Shown here one piece after another: positions 41,153 through 57,434 of a stretch of 64,000 nucleotides of DNA. This stretch comes from Brucella gallinifaecis (GTDB lineage: Bacteria; Pseudomonadota; Alphaproteobacteria; Rhizobiales; Rhizobiaceae), in NCBI RefSeq assembly GCF_006476605.1, contig NZ_ML636800.1, positions 1 to 64,000 on the forward strand, given 5' to 3'. How positions within the stretch are numbered: the first letter of the stretch is position 1; the number at the start of each line of letters is the position of its first letter. The position numbers and the translations under genes were made by a program. Below the pieces are notes generated by a model. It saw nothing but the letters and a program-made list of their open reading frames with translations, searched no databases and was not told the DNA's origin.

Positions 41153-42016
41153 TTAGTCACCCAGCACCTGACGGTCGTCGCGATCGCGTGAGCGGACCAG
41201 TTCTTCCTTTATCTGTCGCAGAATGCGCACGGCACGATTCCGGTCCTCATAAGCAACCATGTTGGCCAGAATATCGATAGTCGCGAGGTAGGCATAACGC
41301 GTAGATGTCGGGCGGAAAATATTGTTGCCTTCAGGGAGGTCAATGGCAATGAGAACATCGCAGGCTTTTGCCAATGGCGAATTGCTCTGGGTGATGATGA
41401 TTGTCGGAATGTCCCGCTCCCGCAAAAGTTTGACACAGTGCAACAGATCCGGATCTCGTCCGGTGATTGAGGAACCGATCACAACCGTTCCAGGTAGAGC
41501 AGCAGAAGAGAGCATAATATTCATGCTGTGGTCATTTGATGAATGAATAGGACATCCAAGCCGAAACAGCCGATTATGTAATTCATTGGCAATCATCGCC
41601 GAATTACCGCTTGCCCCAAAAGCCTGAATGAAGCTGGCGCCACGCAACAAGTGGGCGGCTTTACTGATCGCTTCGAGATCAAGTTGGCGATGCAATTGAA
41701 ACAGTGCATTCTGTGCTTTGGTAATGATATCTTCCGCCACCTCTTCGACACTGTTGGTCTGGGTTTCAGGTGTCAGGTAACGCAAGCCCACATAAGTGAT
41801 TTTTGCCAGTTGCACCTTGAAGTCCGAATAACCCTGACAGCCCAGATGACGGCAGAATCTTGTTACGGTCGGCGCAGAAACATTCACTTTTGCAGCCAAC
41901 TCACTGATGGACGAATTGACAACAAAATCCACATTATTGAGTACAAAATTCGCGAGTTTTTTTTCAAGCCCTGAAAGCCTGATGTCTTCATCGTAAAGCA
42001 CGTGAATAATATCCAT
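41153..42016 (-). CDS. RpiR-family transcriptional regulator
   Basis: A 287-residue regulator. The N-terminal helix-turn-helix of the RpiR type (SSISELAAKVNVSAPTVTRFCRHLGCQGYSDFKVQL) is followed by a C-terminal SIS sugar-phosphate-binding domain (IQAFGASGNSAMIANELHNRLFRLG, VVIGSSITGRDPDLLHCV). SIS domains in such regulators sense phosphosugars. It is divergent from the PLP enzyme at 42166 and probably controls the cluster to 57434, sensing an intermediate such as a 2-keto-3-deoxy-phosphoaldonate (inference). Confidence 0.9.
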   Translation of the reverse strand: MDIIHVLYDEDIRLSGLEKKLANFVLNNVDFVVNSSISELAAKVNVSAPTVTRFCRHLGCQGYSDFKVQLAKITYVGLRYLTPETQTNSVEEVAEDIITKAQNALFQLHRQLDLEAISKAAHLLRGASFIQAFGASGNSAMIANELHNRLFRLGCPIHSSNDHSMNIMLSSAALPGTVVIGSSITGRDPDLLHCVKLLRERDIPTIIITQSNSPLAKACDVLIAIDLPEGNNIFRPTSTRYAYLATIDILANMVAYEDRNRAVRILRQIKEELVRSRDRDDRQVLGD

Positions 42017-42052
42017 AAGAGGGTTGAATCCTTTTAGTGAAGGCAGAGGGTT

Positions 42053-42067
42053 TGAAAAATAATTTCA
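42053..42067. promoter_or_regulatory. RpiR-type operator candidate
   Basis: TGAAA-AATAA-TTTCA is a perfect inverted repeat in the divergent promoter region. GAAA-N-TTTC spacing is common for RpiR-family operators. It lies 37 bases upstream of the regulator's start codon. Confidence 0.5.
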
Positions 42068-42125
42068 CATTTATTGAAAATGGCTGCAATAGTGTGAATA
42101 AGAATGGCAGAAACCTGCCCTTCAG

Positions 42126-55118: not shown

Positions 55119-55945
55119 GCGGGATTACACGTTTATGCAGGTCTGGAGAGGGTATTGCAGGCGTGCTGATGTTGCTGGTGTTGATCATAGCAGCACTTTC
55201 TGCGCCATTATTGTTTCCCGGTGATCCGCAGCGAATTGTTGCCCCGCCACTGCTTGCACCTTTCGATAATCTTTCATTTCCGCTTGGAACGGATCGTCTG
55301 GGCAGAGATGTGTTGTCGGAGCTTTTTCACGCAAGCCGCACATCGCTGCTGGTGGGATTTACAGCCGCCGCCGGATCTATTTTCATTGGCAGTCTTGTTG
55401 GAACATTGGCCGGTTTTGCAGGTGGTCTGGTCGATGAAATTCTGATGCGTATTACTGAAGCTTTTCAGACCGTACCGGGCTTCTTGCTGGCGCTTGCGCT
55501 GGTTAGTATCGCAGGAGCTTCATTGCCGGTTCTGATTGCTGCGATTGCATTATCAAGCTGGACGCAAGCTGCGCGGCTAACACGCGGACAGGTTCTGTCG
55601 ATCCGCGAGTGCGATTTTGTGGCATCAGCGCGTGTCATTGGCATGCATCCGCTGGAAATTGCTTTGCGGCAGATATTGCCCAATGCCTTGCCGCCTGTTC
55701 TTGCACTTGTGCCGGTGATTGTTGCTTCGGCCATTTTGATTGAAGCTGCACTATCATTTCTTGGGTTGGGGGATCCCAATCGGGTGACATGGGGTGGCAT
55801 GATTGCCGAAGGGCGCACGGTTTTGCGTTCAGCGCCGTGGCTTTCCATCCTGCCGGGTCTGGCTTTGGTATTTACAGTCATAGGTGTTTATCTCGCAGGC
55901 GAGGGGATTGCCGAAGCTGCATCACGGCGGGAGGTGCAGCTATGA
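55115..55945 (+). CDS. DppC-type ABC transporter permease, second system
   Basis: A 276-residue inner-membrane permease with LGTDRLGRDVLSELFHASRTSLLVG and the loop CDFVASARVIGMHPLEIALRQILPN, as in DppC proteins. It overlaps the upstream permease and the downstream ATPase gene by four bases each, showing tight operon structure. Confidence 0.9.
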   Translation: MSGITRLCRSGEGIAGVLMLLVLIIAALSAPLLFPGDPQRIVAPPLLAPFDNLSFPLGTDRLGRDVLSELFHASRTSLLVGFTAAAGSIFIGSLVGTLAGFAGGLVDEILMRITEAFQTVPGFLLALALVSIAGASLPVLIAAIALSSWTQAARLTRGQVLSIRECDFVASARVIGMHPLEIALRQILPNALPPVLALVPVIVASAILIEAALSFLGLGDPNRVTWGGMIAEGRTVLRSAPWLSILPGLALVFTVIGVYLAGEGIAEAASRREVQL

Positions 55946-56694
55946 GTGTGCTTGTATCGATTGCAAATCTTGGCGTGCGCTATGGCAATGAGCAGGCATT
56001 GCATAATCTTAATCTTGCTATCAAATCGGGAAAAACGCTTGCCATAATTGGTGAAAGCGGTTCCGGCAAAAGCACGTTGGCTCTGGCCCTTGCCGATTTG
56101 TTGGCGGCAAATGCTAAACTTTCAGGCGAAATCAGATGGCCAAAAGGCAAACCAAAAGCGGGCTGCGATGTGGGTTTTGTATTTCAGGATCCTGCATCCA
56201 GTTTTGACCCTTTGATGCGCGTTGGTATGCAATTGGTTGAGACAATCCGTGCCCATGAAAATATTGATCGTCATGCGGCAAGAGCAAAAGCGATCAGTCT
56301 GTTGGAGCGAGTGCATATAGCCACTCCCGAACAGAGCTTCTCGCGCTATCCGCACCAGTTTTCGGGTGGGCAAAAACAACGTATCGCAATTGCACTTGCT
56401 ATTGCTGCCAATCCTTTTCTGCTGATTGCGGACGAGCCAACCAGTGCACTTGATACCATCGTGCAGCAGGAAATCGTGACACTTTTGCGCAGCCTGGTTC
56501 ACGGTGGCGGCATGACGCTGCTGTTTATTACGCATGATATTGCACTGGCCTCCAACCTGGCTGATGACATTGCCGTGTTCCGCCATGGTGAACTGGTTGA
56601 GACTGGTCCAGCGCATGAGATCATTGCGACTCCGCGCAGCGATTATACGAAAGCATTGATTGCAGCGGTTCCTGTGCTGGATGATGCGTCATGA
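55942..56694 (+). CDS. DppD-type ABC transporter ATPase, second system
   Basis: A 250-residue ATPase with Walker A GESGSGKST, signature FSGGQKQRIAIALAI, Walker B LLIADEPTSALD and switch THDIA. The ATG at 55942 (MSVLVSIANLG) follows GGGAGGTG. It pairs with the next, separate ATPase, unlike the fused protein of the first system, so the two transporters probably have different origins. Confidence 0.9.
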   Translation: MSVLVSIANLGVRYGNEQALHNLNLAIKSGKTLAIIGESGSGKSTLALALADLLAANAKLSGEIRWPKGKPKAGCDVGFVFQDPASSFDPLMRVGMQLVETIRAHENIDRHAARAKAISLLERVHIATPEQSFSRYPHQFSGGQKQRIAIALAIAANPFLLIADEPTSALDTIVQQEIVTLLRSLVHGGGMTLLFITHDIALASNLADDIAVFRHGELVETGPAHEIIATPRSDYTKALIAAVPVLDDAS

Positions 56695-57434
56695 ATAGAG
56701 CACTGTTGCAGGCGGCTGAAATTACTGTGTCTTATGGCGCGAAACTGGCACTTGACCATGTTAGCCTTGAGATTGCAGCTGGTGAAACACTGGCGCTGGT
56801 CGGACCTTCCGGGAGCGGAAAATCTTCGTTGGCACGGGCACTTCTAAGGCTGCAAGCTCTGGATACGGGTTTGATCGAGTTTGAAGGAGAAAACTGGCTT
56901 GCACTCAAAGGTGCACAATTGCGCCAGCGTCGAGCCCGAATGCAAATGGTGTTTCAGGACCCGCTTTCGGCATTCAATCCCCGTGCAACGGTTCATGATC
57001 TGCTGCATGAACCGCTCCGTATTCATGGGATAAGACGCGATATTTCCGAGCTTTTGCAAAAGGTCGGACTTGATCCTGAATTGAGCAAACGCGGGGTGCA
57101 TGAGATATCAGGCGGCCAGCGTCAACGTGTGGCCATTGCGCGTGCGTTAGCAACAATGCCTTCGCTTATTGTTCTGGATGAAGCTGTTTCCGCGCTTGAT
57201 GTAACGGTGCGAGGGGCAATTCTCAAACTTTTGCAGGAGATACAGAAGACTGAAGGCACAGCTTATTTATTTATCACGCATGATCTGGCTGTCGCTGCAC
57301 AAATGGCAGATCGCATAGCTGTGATGGAGTGTGGGCGTATTGTCGAATGCCGCCCGGCACGCGATTTGATTGCGGCACCACAAGCGCCTGTTACACAAGC
57401 GCTAATCGATGCGGTGCCCAGAATATTGGTTTAA
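56691..57434 (+). CDS. DppF-type ABC transporter ATPase, second system
   Basis: A 247-residue ATPase with Walker A GPSGSGKSS, Q-loop VFQDPLSAFNP, signature ISGGQRQRVAIARAL and Walker B LIVLDEAVSALD. Last gene of the second transporter. Its TAA (57432-57434) overlaps the stop of the convergent proC on the other strand, so no separate terminator exists between the two. Confidence 0.9.
   Translation: MNRALLQAAEITVSYGAKLALDHVSLEIAAGETLALVGPSGSGKSSLARALLRLQALDTGLIEFEGENWLALKGAQLRQRRARMQMVFQDPLSAFNPRATVHDLLHEPLRIHGIRRDISELLQKVGLDPELSKRGVHEISGGQRQRVAIARALATMPSLIVLDEAVSALDVTVRGAILKLLQEIQKTEGTAYLFITHDLAVAAQMADRIAVMECGRIVECRPARDLIAAPQAPVTQALIDAVPRILV

What the first reader, a model, noticed from the sequence alone, without database searches (positions are those of the whole stretch)
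41153..57434. Candidate undescribed pathway for an amino-aldonate or its amide conjugate
One block joins an RpiR sugar-phosphate regulator, a fold-III PLP enzyme of the D-threonine aldolase / D-glucosaminate dehydratase type, an MlrC-like M81 peptidase, two complete oligopeptide-type importers, DgoK, DgoA and RidA. A consistent reading is: import of a peptide-like conjugate, amide cleavage by the M81 enzyme, dehydration and deamination of glucosaminate or galactosaminate to a 2-keto-3-deoxy acid with RidA clearing the imine, then kinase and aldolase to pyruvate and glyceraldehyde-3-phosphate. The genes are seen; the pathway is inferred.
Basis: partly seen in the sequence, partly recalled or inferred. 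Interest (0 to 1): 0.8.

Follow-up and report, generated by a model that had tools for sequence, protein, structure and literature searches.

The report
Alternative amino-sugar-acid breakdown gene module
This is a conserved set of bacterial genes that most likely strips and deaminates an acylated amino-sugar acid (such as an oxidised chitin unit), doing a recently described job with two different enzymes.

Summary
The genes are there, but the block should be redrawn. Its core is RpiR | PLP, M81, one oligopeptide-type importer (4 genes), RidA. Seventeen of 80 named loci have this set; most others carry PLP, M81 and RpiR with a different importer. dgoK-dgoA is an insert seen only in the window and one relative. 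The second importer is a separate transporter of the genus. A DNA site (GAAAATWAWWTACA, up to one mismatch) occurs three times in the 64 kb window, all in the two promoters of this block; its only two exact matches in the genome are here. The PLP enzyme is not of the D-threonine aldolase type: it has the HxC metal motif of the dehydratases and its own clade. M81 lies within 10 kb of it in 70 of 80 named loci against 1 of 40 control loci. The closest described system is the ong pathway for oxidised chitin in Gammaproteobacteria: RpiR, fold-III PLP deaminase, RidA, amidase, kinase. Here the amidase (M81 instead of the D-aminoacylase-like OngB) and the PLP subfamily both differ. Best reading: an N-acyl-amino-aldonate pathway, ong-like in logic but not ong by descent. 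Substrate and every reaction remain inferred.

The parts
41153..42016 (-). RpiR-family regulator (HTH_6 + SIS), divergent from the PLP gene; likely regulator of both promoters (inferred)
   Evidence: RpiR within 10 kb of PLP in 68 of 80 named loci
42126..42139 (+). Operator-like site GAAAATTATATACA upstream of the PLP gene
   Evidence: exact match; 3 matches in window at up to 1 mismatch, 0.14 expected
42166..43254 (+). Fold-type III PLP enzyme, dehydratase type (H330-x-C332), proposed amino-aldonate ammonia-lyase
43449..43462 (+). Operator-like site (1 mismatch) upstream of M81
43544..43557 (+). Operator-like site GAAAATAAATTACA upstream of M81 (exact match)
43673..45151 (+). M81 (MlrC-like) zinc hydrolase, proposed N-acyl-amino-aldonate deacylase; zinc ligands E11, D139, H141, H163 kept, MlrC base E70 is L42
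45201..46718 (+). Family 5 substrate-binding protein of the importer that belongs to the set
46729..47679 (+). Permease 1 of that importer
47676..48536 (+). Permease 2 of that importer (OppC_N domain)
48539..50344 (+). Fused double ATPase of that importer (best NCBIfam model GsiA, 768 bits, below its cutoff of 1077)
50346..51275 (+). DgoK-family 2-keto-3-deoxy sugar acid kinase; inserted in the set here and in G014 only
51277..51933 (+). DgoA-type KDPG/KDPGal aldolase; inserted with dgoK
51948..52340 (+). RidA-family protein (imine/enamine deaminase by family); core member
52487..57434 (+). Second oligopeptide-type importer (5 genes); NOT part of the module, listed because the finding includes it

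Best explanation
The core RpiR | PLP, M81-importer-(DgoK-DgoA)-RidA is a two-promoter regulon for using an N-acylated amino-aldonate, most likely N-acetyl-D-glucosaminate (GlcNAc1A, the oxidised end of chitin) or its galacto-isomer. The family-5 ABC importer brings the compound in. M81 hydrolyses the N-acyl amide. The HxC-type PLP enzyme then eliminates water and ammonia from the free amino-aldonate, with RidA hydrolysing the imine/enamine intermediate, giving a 2-keto-3-deoxy sugar acid. DgoK phosphorylates it and DgoA splits it to pyruvate and glyceraldehyde-3-phosphate; relatives without dgoKA here would use kinase and aldolase encoded elsewhere. Shown here by computation: gene set, conservation, shared operator-like site, enzyme subfamily, metal ligands. 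Inferred: substrate, each reaction, and control by RpiR.
For: 1) Same functional set as the experimentally solved ong cluster: RpiR repressor, fold-III PLP GlcN1A deaminase, essential RidA, amidase, KDG kinase, in some an aldolase (PMC9537276). 2) Phaeobacter P73 plasmid: RpiR, TRAP importer, M81, PLP, PfkB sugar kinase, RidA in one stretch; the kinase's best NCBIfam model is KDG/KDGal kinase, 172 bits, below the cutoff of 400. 3) In Rhizobium, Paracoccus, Yoonia and others M81-PLP-RpiR, mostly with RidA, sits with GH20 hexosaminidase, SDR, sugar ABC, in part NagA and ROK. 5) DgoK-DgoA also occurs 8 kb from the PLP gene in Pleomorphomonas oryzae (54%, 61%) and inside one ong-type cluster (L294: 36%, 42%). 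6) HxC metal motif and a clade next to the D-threo-3-hydroxyaspartate dehydratase group. 7) Shared operator-like site in both promoters, and before a relocated ridA in four loci.
Against: No substrate or reaction was tested. The own genome has no GH20 and no LPMO match, so it would depend on oxidised units made by others. dgoKA is not conserved with the core. The one characterised M81 enzyme considered here (MlrC) is a peptidase, and its proposed catalytic base is missing in this M81, so even amide hydrolysis is inferred. M81 at 77% identity occurs in Aureimonas AU20 without a PLP gene annotated within 10 kb; S. meliloti has the PLP gene without M81 within 12 kb, and there the importer-plus-RidA set lacks an amidase, as in L288/L289, whose regulator is IclR-type. 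M81 is near the PLP gene in only 18 of 32 clade-B loci, and 10 of 80 named loci lack it; L202 has none of the labelled partner genes. OngC also deaminates D-serine and D-threonine, so PLP type does not fix the substrate. The sequence of the characterised OngC was not in hand; 'ong-type' rows are named by gene order and, for three loci, by an amidohydrolase closer to PpOngB than to D-aminoacylase. The site is absent from 2 of 17 Dpp-type loci (L164, L172) and from all ten loci I set apart as orphan-type, and it was derived from these same loci.
Confidence: 0.62

Rival explanations
1. The module degrades peptides or N-acyl derivatives of ordinary D-beta-hydroxy amino acids (D-serine, D-threonine, D-hydroxyaspartate): M81 is a true peptidase, the PLP enzyme a D-serine/D-threonine dehydratase, RidA clears the enamine, and dgoKA is a passenger.
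For: M81's closest characterised relative is a peptidase and the importer is oligopeptide-type; the PLP enzyme is sister to the group holding D-threo-3-hydroxyaspartate dehydratase; RidA is a usual partner of such dehydratases (established knowledge); dgoKA is absent from the other Dpp-type loci seen.
Against: Sugar context in other architectures: GH20, NagA, ROK, sugar ABC, SDR, KDG-kinase-like gene, TRAP importer; SIS-domain RpiR regulator; importer shared with ong-type PLP enzymes; three separate DgoKA associations, one of them in an ong-type cluster.
Confidence: 0.2
2. The chemistry is amino-aldonate catabolism but M81 is not the deacylase; it opens a lactone or acts on another linkage, and deacylation (if any) is done elsewhere.
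For: MlrC's proposed general base and aromatic pocket are replaced almost uniformly (E70 to L in 122 of 123 M81 rows, F67 to T in 122 with one gap) while zinc ligands stay; SDR-bearing loci would generate a lactone (inference); NagA, an amidase, is within 10 kb in 20 of 52 other M81-bearing loci.
Against: M81 stands where ong clusters have OngB; zinc site intact; the window's own set holds no other amidase, and none of the 17 Dpp-type loci has NagA among the labelled genes. Unlabelled genes of the other loci were not all identified.
Confidence: 0.12
3. A D-threonine-aldolase pathway (retro-aldol cleavage to glycine and an aldehyde).
For: Overall similarity to D-threonine aldolases 4v15 and 7dib; 4v15 is the best PDB match.
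Against: HxC instead of HxD metal motif in 41 of 41 clade A+B tree rows, and a separate clade from both aldolases.
Confidence: 0.03

Closest known systems
ong cluster / oxidative chitin utilisation of Pseudoalteromonas prydzensis (PMC9537276)
   Same: RpiR repressor, fold-III PLP deaminase, RidA, an amidase, KDG kinase and (in some) aldolase; deacetylation and deamination without prior phosphorylation.
   Different: Amidase is M81, not the D-aminoacylase-fold OngB; PLP enzyme is a different subfamily (23-27% to the six ong-type rows aligned over 60% of their length; separate clades); importer is a family-5 ABC, not an SSS symporter; no GH20 or LPMO in the genome; DgoK/DgoA instead of KdgK/KdgA. 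Known hosts are Gammaproteobacteria and one Achromobacter.
Microcystinase MlrC (M81, PDB 7ylq; PMC9982164, passages)
   Same: Homology over residues 1-483 of 492 (352.9 bits), all four zinc ligands conserved.
   Different: Proposed base E70 and residues W59, F67, F96, Q468, S485 replaced in most rows; gene context differs.
D-threo-3-hydroxyaspartate dehydratase (PDB 3wqc)
   Same: HxC metal motif, fold type III, in the sister group in the tree.
   Different: Separate clade with its own conserved residues (e.g. N93, R238, S274, E303).
D-threonine aldolase (PDB 4v15, 7dib)
   Same: Same superfamily and overall similarity.
   Different: HxD metal motif; different clade.
DgoK-DgoA of D-galactonate catabolism
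   Same: Kinase and aldolase families.
   Different: Two further dgoKA pairs in the same genome sit with an IlvD/Edd-type dehydratase and a galactarate/altronate-type dehydratase; this third pair has no sugar acid dehydratase beside it other than the proposed PLP enzyme.

Membership tests
ong (oxidised chitin) cluster | RpiR/MurR-type regulator next to a fold-III PLP enzyme and RidA | tested here: met
ong (oxidised chitin) cluster | OngB: D-aminoacylase-fold GlcNAc1A deacetylase | tested here: not met
   No such gene in the block; M81 in that place. The amidohydrolases of L292, L293, L294 match PpOngB (PDB 9kb1) at 531-563 bits, above D-aminoacylase.
ong (oxidised chitin) cluster | OngC-subfamily PLP deaminase | tested here: not met
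   12 ong-type rows form one clade (100*), 41 window-type rows another (99*). The characterised OngC itself was not in the tree.
ong (oxidised chitin) cluster | Growth on GlcNAc1A dependent on the cluster | not testable with these tools
   needs culture work
ong (oxidised chitin) cluster | GH20 OngA and LPMO in the genome | tested here: not met
   0 matches to PF00728 and PF03067 in the own genome
D-threonine aldolase | HxD metal site and placement with 4v15/7dib | tested here: not met
Fold-III HxC dehydratase group | HxC metal motif | tested here: met
   41 of 41 clade A+B rows
Fold-III HxC dehydratase group | Dehydratase/ammonia-lyase activity | not testable with these tools
   needs enzyme assay
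M81 (MlrC) metallopeptidase | DUF1485 + MlrC_C domains and E/D/H/H zinc ligands | tested here: met
M81 (MlrC) metallopeptidase | Microcystinase base E70 and aromatic pocket | tested here: not met
   E70 to L in 122 of 123 rows, M in one; F67 to T in 122, one gap (rows include repeats of the same locus)
DgoK/DgoA KDGal pathway | Activity on 2-keto-3-deoxygalactonate rather than gluconate | not testable with these tools
   family models only

The most novel reading that the evidence does not exclude
M81 'MlrC-like metallopeptidases' of this clade are a new family of carbohydrate de-N-acylases, and together with a third, unnamed subfamily of fold-III PLP ammonia-lyases they form a second, independently assembled route for N-acetyl-amino-aldonates (oxidised chitin units) in Rhizobiales and Rhodobacterales, with three alternative front ends: direct uptake of the acid (family-5 ABC or TRAP), sugar uptake plus an SDR 1-dehydrogenase, and GH20-fed oligosaccharides.
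Probability: 0.45. Interest if true: 0.75.

Novelty: new variant of a known kind. Interest (0 to 1): 0.62.

Why it matters
If true, it gives a function to a group of M81 proteins now named after a toxin-degrading peptidase, reads a D-threonine-aldolase-like family as amino-aldonate lyases, and extends the use of oxidised amino sugars, described mainly from marine Gammaproteobacteria (PMC9537276), to soil, plant-associated and marine Alphaproteobacteria by a different set of enzymes. It is directly testable with two purified proteins and one growth substrate. RidA, whose essential role in the ong pathway is unexplained, gains a second co-occurrence with the same chemistry.

Tried and rejected
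Ten paper searches listed no paper that, by title or abstract start, describes this version; I opened seven papers in part only. The library lacks most subscription journals and supplements could not be read. A phage search gave one hit at 29%.

Considered and rejected: D-threonine aldolase; the second importer as a part; dgoKA as core. The 160-residue protein before M81 in Rhizobium-type loci has no Pfam match and remains unexplained. L196 was counted as Dpp-type by the script through a 26% hit; I count 17 Dpp-type loci without it. In three of the 17 (L146, L150, L151) only one permease was labelled. Ten named loci (L153, L154, L155, L156, L158, L161, L170, L202, L214, L218) were set apart by hand as orphan-type; L155 and L156 do carry M81 and RidA. 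Of 90 sites in the 53 further loci only 3 are exact matches, 24 fall inside labelled ORFs (some ORFs are over-long; not resolved one by one) and 5 lie near no labelled gene. The 40 control loci are not matched for base composition.
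Full report
What is there. The window (3.74 Mb genome in 36 contigs; GC 48-52% in this part) carries an RpiR regulator at 41153-42016 (-), divergent from a PLP gene at 42166-43254, then after 418 bases an M81 gene (43673-45151), a family-5 binding protein, two permeases and a fused ATPase (45201-50344), dgoK, dgoA and ridA (50346-52340), and a second family-5 importer (52487-57434), followed by a convergent pyrroline-5-carboxylate reductase gene. 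Two unnamed same-genus genomes have contigs whose lengths equal those of named records: G022:C42, 221,854 bases, as in Ochrobactrum teleogrylli, and G004:C12, 795,518 bases, as in Falsochrobactrum shanghaiense. So the host is probably a Brucellaceae-type bacterium; its species was not established.

Redrawing the block. In the nine same-genus loci L035-L043 the order RpiR | PLP-M81-importer-RidA is kept at 76-96% identity, but dgoK-dgoA lies between importer and ridA only in L035 (G014), as in the window, and the second importer appears in none of these stretches. A search with the second binding protein finds it at 79-91% in 32 of 34 same-genus genomes, and only at 38% in G013 and G014; in the seven other carriers of the PLP-M81 block it is on another contig (five) or 71 and 557 kb away (two). 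It is therefore a separate transporter. Neorhizobium NCHU2750 has the same core without dgoKA. A Rhizobium tumorigenes plasmid has RpiR | M81-importer-RidA without a PLP gene in the stretch, and Shinella zoogloeoides has RpiR | M81-importer and, elsewhere on the same plasmid, PLP-RidA.

Neighbourhood survey. Annotated by BLAST against labelled reference genes, 17 are Dpp-type like the window, and all 17 have M81, RidA and RpiR. The 52 other M81-bearing loci counted form a second architecture around M81 and PLP: SDR in 49, RpiR 48, sugar binding protein 45, Gfo/Idh 44, a 160-residue unknown 44, GH20 38, RidA 35, a second M81 paralogue 34, NagA 20, ROK 17. Within 10 kb of the PLP gene over all 80: M81 70, RpiR 68, RidA 58; in 32 loci of the roughly 50%-identity clade B: M81 18, RidA 23, RpiR 21; in 40 control loci of distant PLP homologues: M81 1, RidA 6, RpiR 1. 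Many Rhizobium loci are near copies, so the counts overstate independence. In plasmid records, 152 Rhizobium and 86 Sinorhizobium records match the PLP query and the same numbers match the M81 query; I did not check that they are the same records.

Regulation. k-mer comparison and inspection of promoter regions of the Dpp-type loci showed a repeated motif. Written as GAAAATWAWWTACA with one mismatch allowed, it occurs three times in the 64 kb window, at 42126, 43449 and 43544, all in the PLP and M81 promoters; 0.14 are expected. In the whole genome there are two exact matches, both here, and 14 matches at up to one mismatch against 10 for the reversed pattern, so the other eleven are background-like. 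Of the 17 Dpp-type loci 15 hold it, six of them as a pair 72 bases apart before M81, and four loci with a relocated ridA (L145, L149, L150, L151) carry a copy before ridA. In 43 of 53 further named loci there are 90 matches: 23 in the divergent promoter between RidA or RpiR and the 160-residue gene or M81, 38 before the Gfo/Idh gene that heads the sugar ABC operon, 24 inside labelled ORFs and 5 unplaced; only 3 of the 90 are exact. The 40 control loci (746 kb) hold none and the ten loci set apart as orphan-type hold none; 32 clade-B loci (637 kb) hold four. The motif was derived from the same kind of loci, so the window count is not an independent test; the whole-genome count and the second architecture are closer to one. 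RpiR binding is inferred.

The PLP enzyme. The metal motif is PNHTC, HxC, as in D-threo-3-hydroxyaspartate dehydratase 3wqc (PNHAC); D-threonine aldolases 4v15 and 7dib have PSHVD, HxD. In 97 tree rows, clade A with the window (19 rows, 99*) and clade A+B (41 rows, 99*) are separate from both aldolases and sister to the group that holds 3wqc (97*); ong-type enzymes form their own clade (12 rows, 100*) (quick search, SH-aLRT only). HxC: 41 of 41 A+B rows and 12 of 12 ong-type rows; among 41 other rows 14 HxC and 27 HxD. A+B has its own conserved residues such as N93, R238, S274 and E303.

The M81 enzyme. It is homologous to microcystinase MlrC over nearly its whole length. Of the MlrC zinc ligands E39, D167, H169, H191 (PMC9982164, passages; one passage prints H196), the last three are kept in 123 of 123 M81 rows and E in 122 with one gap. 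The proposed base E70 is L in 122 and M in one; F67 is T in 122 with one gap; Q468 is H in 123 (rows include repeats of the same locus from different fetches). So a zinc hydrolase with a different, uniform pocket is likely; its substrate is inferred.

Comparison with the ong pathway. In Pseudoalteromonas prydzensis the ong cluster encodes an RpiR repressor, a PLP enzyme that turns glucosaminate into KDG, a RidA protein needed for growth but of unknown role, a D-aminoacylase-related deacetylase, and KDG kinase (PMC9537276: outline and abstract, passages, sections 8, 13, 15, 17, 40). OngB has a D-aminoacylase-like barrel (PMC12017989, passages). The amidohydrolase was confirmed by family search in L292, L293 and L294 and the sodium symporter in L292 and L294; these three amidohydrolases match PpOngB (9kb1) at 563, 531 and 552 bits, above D-aminoacylase at 439, 441 and 473. 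The characterised OngC itself was not in hand. The window set matches in logic but not in amidase, PLP subfamily or transporter. A link between the two: the amino-acid-type ABC importer and RidA beside a window-type PLP in S. meliloti are 60-72% identical to those beside an ong-type PLP and a KdgK-like gene in L288 and L289, while the PLP enzymes share 24%. This suggests one imported substrate class handled by two PLP subfamilies; those loci have no amidase labelled and L288 has an IclR-type regulator. S. meliloti is listed as growing on D-glucosaminic acid (PMC4207669, section 8); which replicon this needs could not be read, because the italics are lost.

Which sugar acid. DgoK and DgoA point to the galacto series, but weakly: DgoK has no NCBIfam match and DgoA matches a subfamily model for 2-dehydro-3-deoxy-6-phosphogalactonate aldolase above its cutoff (272.5 against 207 bits). 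Outside the genus the closest DgoK seen here is in L189 (Pleomorphomonas oryzae, 54%), after NagA, higher than the best plasmid hits (50-51%) and than the genome's own two paralogues (39% and 47%). The genome has one MlrC_C and one D-ser_dehydrat match and no GH20 or LPMO match, so the organism would be a scavenger.

Verdict. A real, conserved module with a shared promoter motif, ong-like in function and different in two key enzymes; best called a new variant of a known kind of pathway. The M81 reaction and the substrate are the decisive unknowns.

Noticed in passing
window 4937-6250 (+): One ORF joins an N-terminal LysR-type HTH domain to MFS transporter sequence; it looks like a deletion fusion.
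   Followed up: partly
window 36181-36915 (-): PALP-family protein in an apparent ectoine/hydroxyectoine catabolic cluster (28405-36915, named from ORF translations and recall) lacks the first 88 profile positions, so the gene may be truncated.
   Followed up: partly
L033:12982-13464 and orthologues: A 160-168 residue protein without Pfam match lies near M81 in 44 of 52 loci of the second architecture; lactonase or accessory role possible.
   Followed up: partly
L034:7722-9155 and orthologues (second M81 paralogue): A second M81 paralogue, usually beside GH20, with the same zinc ligands but N41 replaced by S and F96 by R in 49 of 49 rows.
   Followed up: partly
L135 (Escherichia coli plasmid pEC6563-NDM5): A distant PLP homologue (30%) with an M20 peptidase, RidA and MFS transporter, near blaNDM-5: a third amidase type beside PLP and RidA. 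Described only.
   Followed up: no
window 1655-3890 (-): An IS21-like transposase and helper ATPase pair near the start of the window (read from translations, recalled naming).
   Followed up: no
window 9062-16785: Sigma-54-type activator and hydantoinase/acetone-carboxylase-like large subunits (read from translations, recalled naming).
   Followed up: no
G000:C2:132794 and C15:1949 (L136, L137): Two further dgoK-dgoA pairs, with an IlvD/Edd-type and a galactarate/altronate-type dehydratase.
   Followed up: yes
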